Assembly (NCBI GenBank): GCA_035274845.1
Contig: DATENU010000011.1
Coordinates: 1 to 64,000, forward strand
Length of the DNA stretch: 64,000 nt
Source of the DNA: Chthoniobacterales bacterium
Lineage (GTDB): Bacteria; Verrucomicrobiota; Verrucomicrobiia; Chthoniobacterales; UBA10450
Direction: 5' to 3'
The notes beneath the pieces are model-generated. The model made no database searches. It saw nothing but the letters and a program-made list of their open reading frames with translations, and was not told the origin of the DNA. This document shows, in pieces, positions 5,228-10,632 of the stretch. The number at the start of each line of letters is the position of its first letter. Position 1 is the first letter of the stretch. Position numbers and translations under genes: made by a program.

Positions 5228-7294
5228 ATGAAGATTAGCCGCCGATCCTTTCTCAAAGCTGCGGCGGCAATGGGTGCTTCGCTTGCATGGGTCGGACCAG
5301 CCCGCGGTTCGCGTGTCCGCTGGCAGGACCGGCGTGATCTCTATCCTCAAGGGGTCGCCTCGGGCGACCCCGACCCGCACAGTGTCATCCTGTGGACGAG
5401 ACGTCCGTTCGATCAGGGCACCCGCCAGCTCCTAACCGTCGAGGTAGCCGAGGATGAGGCATTCCGCCGAGTCATTGCGCACGCGCGGGCACCGGTCTCG
5501 AGCGCCGCGGACTGGACCGCGCGCGTCTTAATTGGCGGACTCAAGCCGGCGCGCACTTACTGGTATCGCTTTACCGACACCGACGGGAATGGCAGCCGAG
5601 TCGGCCGCACGATTACCGCGCCGTTGCCGAGCGATCCCCGCACGGTGAACTTCGCATTCGTCAGCTGCCAGGACATCAACGAGGGCAAGCTCAACGCCTA
5701 TCGCCGGATGATTTACGAAGATGAGCGCGCTCCCGACGCCGAGCAGCTGGATTTCGTTCTGCACCTCGGAGATTTCATCTACGAGGTGGTCGAGTATCCC
5801 GACGAGGTGAAGACGCGCTATGACCGCACGATCTACGAAGTCACCCGCATCCCGGACGGCCACAAGGTCGGCAATTTCCACATCCCGCTGACCGTTGATG
5901 GCTACCGGGCCATCTACAAAGGCTATCTCGCTGATCCGGATCTCCAGGACGCGCGCGCTCGCTGGCCGTTCGTCGCGATCTGGGATAACCACGAATTCTC
6001 CTGGCAGGGTTGGCAAAGCATCGTCAAGGCTGGGAAGTTCGAGCAGCCGGGCCAGAGCGTGAAGGTCGCGGCGAATCAGGCCTGGTTTGAATATATCCCC
6101 GCACGTATCGATCGTCCCGGCGGCTCGCTCGAGCGCTTCGATCCACCGGCCGTAAAGAACGTTCCGATCGACAAGTTCGATAGCGATGGGCTGGGAATGG
6201 AACCGAACAACCTGACGGCGATTAACAGCCTCAAGGGTTACCGGGCGCTGCGGTACGGCCGCCACCTGGACCTGATCATTACCGACCAGCATAGCTATCG
6301 GAGCGCGGATCCCTTCAGCGATCCGTCTCTTGGAAAACTCGGCGGCGACGAGTTCATCGGAATGGCTTCTGAATCTCTGATGCAAATTCTCGACGGCGGC
6401 CGCGCCTTCAACGGCGGCAATCCTCCTCCGGAAGTTCGGTTCAACGATGCGCATGTCCCCAACCCGCAACGGAGCGCGCCGCCGCAAACGATTCTTGGTG
6501 CGGCGCAGAAGGCTTGGTTCAAGGACAAGCTCAAGAGCTCAAAAGCTGCGTGGAAAATCTGGGCAAACTCCATGGGTGCGCTCGATGAGCGCGCCGACCC
6601 GCAGAACCTGCCGCTCGGTCTCACCAAGGAGGCGTGGCCGAAAGAGGGCGGCTACGCGAACATGGGCGGGGGTGATTTCGGTACCGCTTACCTGGAGCGC
6701 GCTGAAATCTACAATCTCGTGCGCGACGCGAAGATCACAGGCTTCGCCATCGTCTCGGGCGATCGCCACAGCTTCTGGGCCGGATATGCGACCGCGGAAC
6801 TTCCGCCCGGCAAGTTCGAGCCGGTCGGCTTGAGCTTCATTGGCGCGTCACTCACCAGTCCCGGTCCTATGGAAGCTAATGAGCATAATCTTAAGAAGGA
6901 TGCTCCGCTGCGCGCGCTGTTTCTTGCGGACAAGGAGGCGGGGGCCCAGCCGGAATGGACCTTCAACATGCTGCTGAGGCACGGTGTCCGTTCCTGCCTC
7001 GAATATGCAAAGAGCTTCGACCTGAAGCGTGCGCGGTCGCTTTCCAATCCTGACCTCGCTCCGCACCTCGAGTTCGTCGACCTGGGAGGACACGGTTATG
7101 CGAAGGTCCAACTGTCGGCCGATGTGATGCGCACCGAGTTTGTCTGCGTCCCGCGCCCCATTACCCGCAGCGAAAAACCAGACGGCGGGCCGCTCCGGTA
7201 TCGCACCTTGCACACCGCCGCCCTCTGGAAGAGCGGCGAGCGCCCGCAGCTGAAGACATCCGTTCTCGAAGGCGACGCTGGACTATCGATTTGA
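5228..7294 (+). CDS. phoD: PhoD-family alkaline phosphatase, Tat-exported
   Basis: 688 aa. The ATG at 5228 gives a twin-arginine signal (SRRSFLK followed by AAAAMGASLAWVG), so the protein should be exported folded across the inner membrane. The N-terminal PhoD domain has YPQGVASGDPDP and VILWTRRP; metal-site motifs of the PhoD metallophosphatase domain follow: VSCQDINEG, HLGDFIYE, IWDNHEF and SGDRHSFW. The family hydrolyses phosphomono- and diesters using Ca2+ and Fe3+; the substrate is not evident here. It starts seven bases after lspA. Its last 160 codons have a close copy at 10150-10632. Confidence 0.92.
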   Translation: MKISRRSFLKAAAAMGASLAWVGPARGSRVRWQDRRDLYPQGVASGDPDPHSVILWTRRPFDQGTRQLLTVEVAEDEAFRRVIAHARAPVSSAADWTARVLIGGLKPARTYWYRFTDTDGNGSRVGRTITAPLPSDPRTVNFAFVSCQDINEGKLNAYRRMIYEDERAPDAEQLDFVLHLGDFIYEVVEYPDEVKTRYDRTIYEVTRIPDGHKVGNFHIPLTVDGYRAIYKGYLADPDLQDARARWPFVAIWDNHEFSWQGWQSIVKAGKFEQPGQSVKVAANQAWFEYIPARIDRPGGSLERFDPPAVKNVPIDKFDSDGLGMEPNNLTAINSLKGYRALRYGRHLDLIITDQHSYRSADPFSDPSLGKLGGDEFIGMASESLMQILDGGRAFNGGNPPPEVRFNDAHVPNPQRSAPPQTILGAAQKAWFKDKLKSSKAAWKIWANSMGALDERADPQNLPLGLTKEAWPKEGGYANMGGGDFGTAYLERAEIYNLVRDAKITGFAIVSGDRHSFWAGYATAELPPGKFEPVGLSFIGASLTSPGPMEANEHNLKKDAPLRALFLADKEAGAQPEWTFNMLLRHGVRSCLEYAKSFDLKRARSLSNPDLAPHLEFVDLGGHGYAKVQLSADVMRTEFVCVPRPITRSEKPDGGPLRYRTLHTAALWKSGERPQLKTSVLEGDAGLSI

Positions 7295-7628: not shown

Positions 7629-10070
7629 ATGGAATTTGATGCCTTCCTCTGCTACAGCCATACGGATTCCCATCTTGCCGGCCTCATAGCGGTCAGACTA
7701 AAGAAACTAATCGGCAGCGCTCGTGGTCAGCATCGTGGACGCATTTTCCACGATGTCTCAGATCTTTCGGCTGCGGCGAACTTACGCCCGACCATTCTGA
7801 AAGCCCTCGATGACTCCCGATTCCTGATTCTTCTGGCTTCTCCGAGCGCAGCGCGGTCTCAGTGGGTCAATGTCGAAGTGGAGTATTGGTTGAAGCGCAA
7901 TTCTCCCGAAACTATTTTGGTTGTTCTTACAGACGGACAAATAGTAGGCGACCGATCCGGAGTAACGCACGGCCAGCCGGCCACTACAGCCCTCCCACCA
8001 TCGCTAATCGGAGCGTTCGCTGTTAACGCGGTGTACATTGACCTGCGGTGGGCGAAGAACGCCACTGCCGATATTACCGATCGTTTCGAGTTTGCTCAGG
8101 CCGTGGCTCGATTAGCAGCCGCTGTGACCGGGCGTTCGGTTGACGATATCGTTCAGCGGAGCGCCCGACGGGTCCGCCAACGTAGGCAACTGCTAATTAT
8201 GTCAGCCGGGGTGCTGGGGCTTTTCGCGGCCGCTTTTTTTTGGCTAAGCATCCAACGGACACGTGATGCACTGGTTTTGCGTGAGAGCGCACTTCGAGCG
8301 CGCGCGGTCGCCGAGCAACTAAATCAGGAACTGACTGCTCTGCAGGCGCGCCAAACGACTCTGGAGAGCGAACTGTTATTTCGGCAACCGTTCAGCTGGC
8401 TGTCTCCTGGCAACGAAGGCCAAGGACTTTCCTTGTCGCCGCTGTTGAACAACGAGCAGCTGCGCATTCCAGATCTTTTGGCTGCTATCGGGCCCTCACA
8501 GGTCGACAATTTTGTATTCCAGCGCCTAGCGAGAGAGCGACTCCAGGAAATCGAGACTCTGAACCGCCTACTCCAAGAACAAAAAGACCGACTCCAGAGT
8601 CAGAAGACGCTAATCGATTCCCTGCTTAAACCTGAGGTGCCGAAGCAAGGAATGGTGGTTGAATTTATCAAGACCAATGCGGCGCTTCTCTCCGCTGGCT
8701 GCGCGATCACTCTCGCGTTGCTGGCGCTGTCTACGCGTTACGTCGATATCCTGCTAGGATTTGATCTCCCGATTGTGCGGAACATCGCGGCTTTATTCTA
8801 CCTGACTCGCATTGGGCGGTACCGACTCTTTTCTCGATACGAAAAGAACCTGTTGAAAGACGAACAAATGGCGGCGGCTTCCAGTCGCTATGTCGATTTG
8901 CCGTTCGAGACAAAGGGCGTAGAATGCGAAGATAAGGCTTCCCTTGCACGGGCGCTGACTGCAGTTCTGACTTTGGAAAATGCTTCCGTGATAGCTGAAG
9001 GGGGTAAAGGAAAAACGACCCTAGCGTATAAGATAGCGTTGGCAGTACTGCGCGGAGAATTGCAGCCTGAGGGAAAGCCGACGACGCCCATCGTGGTCGA
9101 TGGGTTGGAGTACGATGGAGATCTTCTCGGTTCCATTACGACCAGTCTCCAGCAGCGCAAGGTCACCATTAACCGGGAAGTCGTGAAATCACTCCTGAAG
9201 GCTGGTCACCTCTTTGTCACGTTCGATGGTTGGTCGGAAGTGCGAGAGTTTTATGTAGCGACTCAGTCGCAGACGGAGGTGGCTAACCTAATCAGGCAAA
9301 ATGCGGCGAGTCGCTTTTTATTTACTTCCCGAAATGAGCTCCCGGCTTCGCTGCAGGAGGCTCTCGGAAGAACTCGATTCTATTTGAAGGATGTGAATGC
9401 TGAGTCACTCGAAACATTCCTGAAGCAGTACCTGCCTGCGGGCACCGATGCCGCCAAACTATTGGAGGATCGCCTCCAAGATACTTCGATGGAAGTTCCC
9501 TGGACGCCGCTGATGTTACGCATGGTCGCTCGCATTTACGGGCAACATTCCAAGATCCCCACAGAACGGATCGAGCTATTTGAAGAATATTTTCATGAGT
9601 TGCTAGATGATCGCGTAGTCGGAAACGCGGACATCAGCGGTTTCACTTACTTGGTAGAACATTTGGTTCGAAGCACATTCCTTGCATCACACGGTGTTCG
9701 GGGTTTCGAGATCGAAAAAGGCGTTTCCTTGTTGGAAAACATCAAAGCCAAATTGGAAAGCTATAATATTCGGCAACTTCCGATCGACCTAATACGCAAA
9801 CTGGGCGGTGCGGGACTGTATCAGCGAAAAGGAAGTCGCATCCGTTTTTTTCACGACTCGTTTGAGAGTTTTTTTGCCGCCCGCTGCTTGTACCAGGATG
9901 TAAAGTCAGGATTAACTGAGACTTTGGCGCACTGCGCCAACGAACCACGCCTCGCCGAGCCATGGCAACTCCTGCACGAAATCGCGACTCGCGAGCGAGA
10001 TCAAAGCCTGCTGGAGCTGATGGCCCAATTGAGCCAAGCCAAAGCTATAAGATCTGAGGCTTTCGCTTAA
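7629..10070 (+). CDS. Membrane-anchored TIR-NACHT-type NTPase (candidate antiphage protein)
   Basis: 813 aa from ATG 7629, chosen because AAGGA lies eight bases upstream and MEFDAFLCYSH begins the TIR domain directly. Residues 1-165 are TIR: FDAFLCYSH, IFHDVSDLSAAANL, and SQWVNVEVEYW with Glu83 as the likely NADase glutamate. A hydrophobic segment at 187-206 is followed by coiled-coil-like stretches (about 208-250 and 295-330) and a second hydrophobic segment at 349-367. A STAND/NACHT NTPase follows: Walker A GGKGKTT (458-464), Walker B LFVTFDG (Asp533), FLFTSRNE (563-570) and the NACHT C-terminal signature FHDSFESFFAA (741-751). Only about 60 residues remain after that, so no long repeat sensor is present. 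Related TIR-STAND proteins deplete NAD on phage infection; that role is inferred. Base composition looks less GC-rich than its neighbours. Confidence 0.85.
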   Translation: MEFDAFLCYSHTDSHLAGLIAVRLKKLIGSARGQHRGRIFHDVSDLSAAANLRPTILKALDDSRFLILLASPSAARSQWVNVEVEYWLKRNSPETILVVLTDGQIVGDRSGVTHGQPATTALPPSLIGAFAVNAVYIDLRWAKNATADITDRFEFAQAVARLAAAVTGRSVDDIVQRSARRVRQRRQLLIMSAGVLGLFAAAFFWLSIQRTRDALVLRESALRARAVAEQLNQELTALQARQTTLESELLFRQPFSWLSPGNEGQGLSLSPLLNNEQLRIPDLLAAIGPSQVDNFVFQRLARERLQEIETLNRLLQEQKDRLQSQKTLIDSLLKPEVPKQGMVVEFIKTNAALLSAGCAITLALLALSTRYVDILLGFDLPIVRNIAALFYLTRIGRYRLFSRYEKNLLKDEQMAAASSRYVDLPFETKGVECEDKASLARALTAVLTLENASVIAEGGKGKTTLAYKIALAVLRGELQPEGKPTTPIVVDGLEYDGDLLGSITTSLQQRKVTINREVVKSLLKAGHLFVTFDGWSEVREFYVATQSQTEVANLIRQNAASRFLFTSRNELPASLQEALGRTRFYLKDVNAESLETFLKQYLPAGTDAAKLLEDRLQDTSMEVPWTPLMLRMVARIYGQHSKIPTERIELFEEYFHELLDDRVVGNADISGFTYLVEHLVRSTFLASHGVRGFEIEKGVSLLENIKAKLESYNIRQLPIDLIRKLGGAGLYQRKGSRIRFFHDSFESFFAARCLYQDVKSGLTETLAHCANEPRLAEPWQLLHEIATRERDQSLLELMAQLSQAKAIRSEAFA

Positions 10071-10083
10071 GAAAGGATCACGG

Positions 10084-10134
10084 GGGATCAGGGCTTACTT
10101 TCGTCACAAACTGTCACTACTTAGCTCTGATCCC
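10084..10134 (+). terminator. Imperfect inverted repeat after the TIR-NACHT gene
   Basis: GGGATCAGGGCT at 10084-10095 and AGCTCTGATCCC at 10123-10134 are inverted copies with one mismatch, separated by 27 bases and followed by a T-rich CCCTTTTCGCTTTTC. It begins 14 bases after the TIR stop. The long loop is unusual for an intrinsic terminator, so it could instead be an end of a former mobile piece: the phoD remnant begins 16 bases further on. Confidence 0.4.
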
Positions 10135-10149
10135 TTTTCGCTTTTCTGT

Positions 10150-10632
10150 AAGTTCGAGCCCGTCGGCCTGAGTTTCGTCGGTGCGTCTCTCACCAGCCCC
10201 GGCCCCATGGAAGCTAATGAGCACAATCTTAAGAAAGACAATCCGCTCCGATCGCTCTTTCTCGCGGACAAGGCGGGAGCGGAGAAGCCGGAATGGACCT
10301 TCAACATGCTGCTGAGGCACGGCGTCCGTTCGTGCTTGGAATACGCGAAGAGCTTCGATCTGGAGCGAGCCCGGTCACTCTCCAACCCGGACCTAGCTCC
10401 GCACCTCGAGTTCGTCGACCTGGGAGGACACGGTTATGCGAAGGTCCAACTGTCGGCCGATGTGATGCGCACCGAGTTTGTCTGCGTCCCGCGCCCCATT
10501 ACCCGTAGCGAAAAACCAGACGGCGGGCCAATCAGGTATCGGGTATTACACACTGTGGCACTGTGGAAAAGCGGAGAGCGCCCGCAGCTTAAGACATCGG
10601 TTCTTGAAGGGGACGCTGGACTGTCGATTTGA
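10150..10632 (+). pseudogene. 3' remnant of a second phoD gene
   Basis: The frame from 10150 (KFEPVGLSF) to the TGA at 10630-10632 matches the last 160 residues of the intact PhoD at 5228-7294, with about a dozen amino-acid differences and the same C-terminus (VLEGDAGLSI). Homology starts abruptly at phoD codon 529, and there is no upstream sequence for the catalytic core, so this cannot be a working phosphatase. An internal ATG at 10207 could give a 141-residue product, but nothing suggests it is used. Similarity is uneven: one 110-bp block is identical to phoD while the flanks differ at many positions. Confidence 0.85.
10396..10505 (+). repeat. 110-bp tract identical to phoD 7058-7167
   Basis: Base-by-base comparison shows no difference between 10396-10505 and 7058-7167, whereas both sides of the block carry frequent mismatches. 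Such a patch within otherwise diverged copies is typical of gene conversion or recent homologous recombination between two copies in direct orientation. Confidence 0.85.

What the first reader, a model, noticed from the sequence alone, without database searches (positions are those of the whole stretch)
7629..10070. Two-transmembrane TIR-NACHT protein without a long sensor
The sequence shows TIR, membrane segment, coiled coil, membrane segment, NACHT-type NTPase, and then only about 60 residues. Known defence STAND proteins usually have a large C-terminal repeat sensor. Here sensing may be done by the segment between the two membrane helices, or by a membrane change, which would be an unusual layout for a NADase effector. 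Alternatively the sensor was lost when the gene was cut at its 3' side.
Basis: partly seen in the sequence, partly recalled or inferred. Interest (0 to 1): 0.65.

Follow-up and report, generated by a model that had tools for sequence, protein, structure and literature searches.

The report
Membrane-spanning TIR-NACHT protein lacking a sensor
A bacterium carries one apparently intact gene for a suspected suicide switch (a TIR enzyme joined to an NLR-like NACHT motor) that is threaded twice through the membrane and ends where its relatives carry a target-sensing tail, so it is either a new membrane-sensing layout or a gene that lost its sensor.

Summary
Window 7629-10070 encodes 813 residues: TIR (catalytic-type WVxxE, Glu83), one clear transmembrane helix (188-208), a helical/coiled-coil segment (209-350), a second transmembrane helix (351-369), then a complete NLR-type core (NBD-HD1-WHD; Walker A Lys462) that superposes on NLRC4, NOD2 and NLRP3 and stops inside the HD2 equivalent. 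Only 64 residues follow the winged-helix motif; all relatives measured have 176-620. The TIR-TM part is a module common in the genus, where it normally carries WD40, TPR or other domains and has one membrane helix. The NACHT part resembles soluble NACHT proteins, mainly cyanobacterial. No second protein with both parts was found in samples of three phyla. Horizontal gain is likely (GC3 0.56 against 0.67-0.76 for neighbours). The gene lies between an intact phoD and a 161-codon remnant of a second phoD, beside a palindrome, at a site empty in five of seven congeners. Its 3' end thus abuts a recombination junction, so loss of a sensor cannot be excluded. Best reading: a chimeric two-TM TIR-STAND NADase with cytosolic TIR and NACHT and a periplasmic helical hairpin. 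Whether that hairpin senses anything is open. New variant of a known kind, seen once.

The parts
7629..10070 (+). TIR-TM-CC-TM-NACHT gene, 813 aa
   Evidence: AAGGA box upstream of ATG
7629..8048 (+). TIR domain (residues 1-140), WVxxE catalytic-type Glu83
   Evidence: Pfam TIR_2 8.8e-9; E83 invariant in A2
8190..8252 (+). transmembrane helix 1 (residues 188-208)
   Evidence: the same TIR-then-TM order in 13 of 14 TIR proteins of relatives
8253..8678 (+). inter-membrane segment (residues 209-350), two long helices, presumed periplasmic
   Evidence: AlphaFold helices to 251 and 289-333; heptad test
8679..8735 (+). transmembrane helix 2 (residues 351-369)
8952..9890 (+). NACHT NBD-HD1-WHD core (residues 442-754); Walker A 458-464, WHD motif 740-749
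9891..10067 (+). short C-terminal helices (residues 755-813), early-HD2 equivalent
   Evidence: model pLDDT 73-89 for residues 761-800; aligns to NLRC4 up to residue 518
10084..10135 (+). palindrome / hairpin after the stop, also present on the phoD contig in two congeners
   Evidence: fold z -5.3
5228..7294 (+). intact phoD (TAT-signal PhoD phosphatase)
10150..10632 (+). remnant of a second phoD: 3'-terminal 160 codons plus stop

Best explanation
It is a chimeric STAND protein made by joining a genus-typical TIR-TM-coiled-coil module to a second membrane helix and an NLR-type NACHT core. TIR and NACHT both face the cytosol and a helical hairpin of about 140 residues faces the periplasm (inferred). 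Proposed mechanism: the resting ADP-bound core keeps the TIR domains apart. A change in the envelope or in the membrane segments, or a cytosolic partner, lets the NACHT core exchange nucleotide and oligomerise. This brings TIR domains together below the membrane, which then consume NAD+ and stop the infected cell. Shown here by sequence and fold: the domain order, the conserved catalytic-type residues, the two membrane segments, the complete NBD-HD1-WHD core and the absence of a repeat sensor. Inferred: topology, NADase activity, role in phage defence, and what triggers it. The specific claim that the hairpin is the sensor I put at about 0.3.
For: TIR with WVxxE. NACHT core with invariant Walker A, Walker B and R-sensor positions and NLR fold (Z 24.4 NLRC4, about 22-24 NLRP3 and NOD2 over residues 387-813; fragment model Z 20.9). 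Two membrane segments only. TIR-TM1 module shared with TIR proteins of the genus and of plasmids (37% to Methylorubrum, 33% to Streptomyces). The ORF is undamaged. GC3 is 0.56 against 0.67-0.76 for neighbours, as expected of a gained defence gene. phoD in two congeners neighbours a Pycsar cyclase or a SIR2-TPR gene.
Against: No other protein with this order was found, so conservation of the layout is untested. Relatives of the NACHT half all carry a longer C-terminus. The gene ends beside a recombination junction. The second helix shows no significant heptad pattern. The Walker B region reads DGWSE where relatives have DGLDE. The full-length model is low-confidence in the TIR and in residues 361-441. 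Nothing here demonstrates NADase or anti-phage activity.
Confidence: 0.5

Rival explanations
1. The gene is a 3'-truncated remnant: it once ended in HD2 plus a sensor, which was lost when the region was joined to the phoD remnant. What is left is inactive or constitutively restrained.
For: All NACHT relatives measured have at least 176 residues after the WHD motif against 64 here. The chain stops inside the HD2 equivalent. A palindrome and a 5'-truncated phoD copy begin within about 14 and 80 bp of the stop.
Against: The stop comes before the palindrome, not inside recognisable foreign sequence. The last residues form confidently predicted helices. The ORF, start site and all motifs are intact. 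The relatives compared are only about 19-30% identical. Short C-termini exist in other bacterial NACHT clades (SNaCT, PMC12169576).
Confidence: 0.37
2. The protein is complete but is not a self-contained sensor: it is a membrane-bound adaptor/effector whose NACHT core is switched on by another protein, with the periplasmic part serving only to anchor or oligomerise.
For: No recognisable sensor domain; helical inter-membrane segment of the kind used for oligomerisation; bacterial NACHT proteins with short C-termini are active (PMC12169576).
Against: No partner gene: the neighbours are phoD and a calcium exchanger gene.
Confidence: 0.25
3. It is not a defence protein but a housekeeping or developmental signalling protein with TIR and NACHT parts.
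For: No direct defence assay; TIR-TM-WD40/TPR proteins are numerous in the genus with unknown roles.
Against: Present in one genome only, atypical GC3, insertion at a site empty in five of seven congeners, absent from order and class samples.
Confidence: 0.12

Closest known systems
TIR-TM-WD40/TPR proteins of the same genus and of plasmids (for example Methylorubrum WP_012606285.1)
   Same: TIR sequence (37% identity), arginine-rich stretch, then one TM helix, then a helical stretch
   Different: They continue into WD40, TPR or other domains and have one TM helix (13 of 14 TIR proteins have a TM after TIR); no NACHT
Bacterial NACHT proteins with NCH2 C-termini (for example Calothrix BDA75957.1)
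   Same: NBD-HD1-WHD core, about 24% identity over 350 residues
   Different: No TIR or clear TM helix, and about 265 more C-terminal residues ending in NCH2
bNACHT proteins with SNaCT C-termini (clade 14; bNACHT02, bNACHT12)
   Same: NACHT protein with a short C-terminus
   Different: No readily discernible effector domain reported (PMC12169576); no TIR or two-TM layout mentioned in the passage read. Their sequences were not compared here
TIR-NLR systems and plant TIR-NLRs
   Same: N-terminal TIR with a central STAND NTPase
   Different: Not recalled to have membrane helices between the two; large C-terminal sensor present (own knowledge)
Metazoan NLRs NLRC4, NOD2, NLRP3
   Same: Fold of residues 387-813 matches NBD-HD1-WHD and early HD2
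   Different: They have full HD2 plus LRR sensor and CARD or PYD instead of TIR (own knowledge)

Membership tests
TIR domain NADase | TIR fold family match | tested here: met
   TIR_2 E 8.8e-9 and ThsB_TIR E 6e-6, both above curated cut-offs
TIR domain NADase | catalytic glutamate in the (S)xWVxxE motif | tested here: met
   E83 invariant in five TIR proteins aligned
TIR domain NADase | NAD+ cleavage | not testable with these tools
   needs an enzyme assay
NACHT-clade STAND NTPase | Walker A, Walker B and R-sensor motifs | tested here: met
   G459, G461, K462, T464, D533, E537, R568 invariant across 13 sequences; S in place of the otherwise nearly invariant D at 536
NACHT-clade STAND NTPase | Pfam NACHT gathering score | tested here: not met
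   20.2 bits against 26.7; fold and alignment support it nonetheless
NACHT-clade STAND NTPase | NBD-HD1-WHD fold | tested here: met
   Z 24.4 NLRC4, 23.7 NLRP3
tripartite NLR-like defence protein (effector-STAND-sensor) | large C-terminal sensor | tested here: not met
   64 residues after the WHD motif against 176-620 in relatives
Thoeris ThsB / ThcB4 | full-length family match | tested here: not met
   only weak TIR-region matches; ThcB4 17 bits against a cut-off of 220
genus TIR-TM family | TIR followed by one TM helix and a C-terminal repeat or other domain | tested here: not met
   TIR-TM part shared, but a second TM and NACHT replace the repeats
bNACHT SNaCT clade | SNaCT domain | not tested
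   no SNaCT sequences at hand
anti-phage defence system | protection against phage | not testable with these tools
   needs a plaque assay

The most novel reading that the evidence does not exclude
A STAND protein in which the C-terminal sensor is dispensable because sensing moved to a periplasmic helical hairpin between two membrane helices, so that envelope or infection-entry events are read outside and answered by a TIR NADase inside through a NACHT motor on the same chain.
Probability: 0.2. Interest if true: 0.8.

Novelty: new variant of a known kind. Interest (0 to 1): 0.45.

Why it matters
Known STAND defence proteins detect phage proteins in the cytosol through C-terminal repeats. A receptor-like layout, with a periplasmic segment between two membrane helices and both the NACHT switch and the TIR enzyme inside, would link envelope sensing to NLR-type signalling in bacteria and resemble a Toll-like receptor fused to an NLR. 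If the gene is instead truncated, it is an ordinary loss event.

Tried and rejected
Searching for the same architecture: 58 relatives, 387 genomes of the phylum, 213 of the order, 384 of the class, 398 of the phylum of a Colwellia MAG and 292 of the phylum of a Scytonema genome (samples overlap), two genome-contig scans, two viral-contig scans and two plasmid tblastn searches gave NACHT-only or TIR-only relatives, never both in the hits inspected. Twenty NACHT proteins from the second outside phylum were checked one by one: none has a TIR domain or a predicted membrane helix. A third hydrophobic stretch (374-392) was rejected as a membrane helix because it holds D, P, R and N and scores +4.8. 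Structural searches list NLRs above all others; absence of other families there is not evidence. The paper defining bNACHT clades (10.1016/j.cell.2023.04.015) is not held. The idea that the phoD repeats are site-specific integration ends was dropped: the repeat is 483 bp long, diverged and mosaic, which points to homologous recombination.

Full report
Observation. The ORF at 7629-10070 is 813 codons long and undamaged. Pfam finds TIR_2 (8.8e-9) and ThsB_TIR (6e-6) in residues 6-102 and a sub-threshold NACHT (5.7e-4, residues 457-603). The TIR alignment keeps the WVxxE glutamate, Glu83. One oddity is DGWSE where relatives have DGLDE.

Membrane and linker. Hydropathy and a rough version of the biological insertion scale single out 188-208 and 351-369; nothing else scores below zero. 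Arginine clusters before TM1 and after TM2 suggest that both ends are inside and residues 209-350 are outside, but basic residues also follow TM1, so this is an inference. AlphaFold draws long helices 171-251 and 289-333 with a loose turn between (pLDDT about 80-86 in the helix cores). The heptad pattern is significant for 212-251 only.

NACHT core and the missing sensor. Residues 387-813 of the full model superpose on NLRC4 93-518 (Z 24.4, rmsd 4.2, 373 aligned), on NLRP3 (Z up to 23.7) and on NOD2 (Z up to 22.4); the separate NACHT model agrees (Z 20.9). From my knowledge of NLRC4 (WHD about 356-463, HD2 about 464-622, then LRR), the protein has NBD, HD1 and WHD and ends early in HD2. I measured the residues left after the WHD motif in 26 relatives (one Calothrix protein is listed twice): 64 here, 176 to 620 in all others.

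Where the parts come from. In relatives, 13 of 14 TIR proteins have a TM helix right after the TIR domain and then WD40, TPR or other domains. The window protein shares this TIR-TM start, best with Methylorubrum (37%) and Streptomyces (33%) plasmid proteins. Its NACHT half is closest to NACHT proteins without TIR, several with NCH2 C-termini. Twenty of these from one phylum have no TIR domain and no predicted membrane helix. No hit inspected in the genome, plasmid and viral searches holds both halves. It is thus a fusion of two known modules, seen once.

Locus. The gene has GC3 0.56 against 0.67-0.76 for ileS, phoD, chaA and cca. In five of seven congeners ileS is followed, after a gap that fits one small gene (lspA), by chaA; two others carry different insertions there. 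In the window the insertion is phoD, the TIR-NACHT gene, a palindrome (stem of about 14 bp, z -5.3) and the last 161 codons, stop included, of a second phoD. The two phoD tails are mosaics: 83% identical in the first 245 bp, 98.5% over 135 bp (7057-7191), 76% in the next 67 bp, where the remnant is closer to a congener (90%). This fits homologous recombination and gene conversion. Recombination between the two direct repeats would remove the TIR-NACHT gene and leave one phoD (inference).

phoD and defence genes. In G002 the phoD orthologue follows a capP-like gene (4.4e-57), a Pycsar cyclase (4.7e-98) and a second cyclase-like ORF; in G004 it follows a SIR2-TPR gene (pAgo-type SIR2 5.4e-26). 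With the window this makes three species with three unrelated defence-type genes next to phoD. It supports a defence reading by neighbourhood but is only three cases.

Mechanism and verdict. The best-supported reading is a membrane-spanning TIR-STAND suicide protein with a cytosolic TIR and NACHT. What triggers it is not known. The hairpin is a candidate because presumed sensors of the genus TIR-TM proteins also lie after TM1. Against this stands the truncation rival, which I rate at 0.37: every relative is longer, and the gene stops about 14 bp before a palindrome and 80 bp before a cut gene. For the natural end speak the confident terminal helices, the intact frame and the existence of other short-C-terminus NACHT clades (SNaCT, PMC12169576). 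One close homologue would decide it. Interest 0.45: unusual layout, but single and possibly truncated.

Noticed in passing
window 6812-7294 and 10150-10632: Direct repeat of the phoD 3' end flanking the TIR-NACHT gene; mosaic identity with a 135-bp nearly identical tract, suggesting gene conversion and possible excision of the gene by homologous recombination.
   Followed up: partly
L072 8777-14255 and L071 7802-11994: phoD orthologues in two congeners sit next to anti-phage genes (capP-like plus Pycsar cyclase; SIR2-TPR). phoD may mark a defence-gene hotspot in this genus.
   Followed up: partly
L072 11265-11999 (-): 244-aa ORF between PycC and phoD with cyclase-like sequence (IDLTSSTEAS, KEIGDATLFIF) but no Pfam or PADLOC match.
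   Followed up: no
window 10084-10135; L072 2398-2445; L071 7508-7542: REP-like palindrome (GGATCAGGGCTTACTTTCGTCAC...GCTCTGATCCC) found once or twice per genome, on the same contig as phoD in three genomes.
   Followed up: partly
L073 and L074 (congeners, between lspA and chaA): The lspA-chaA gap takes different insertions in different species (several genes in one, a 1219-aa protein in another).
   Followed up: partly
L040 2990-4126: Second TIR protein in the same genome: TIR-TM ORF of 378 aa, short.
   Followed up: no
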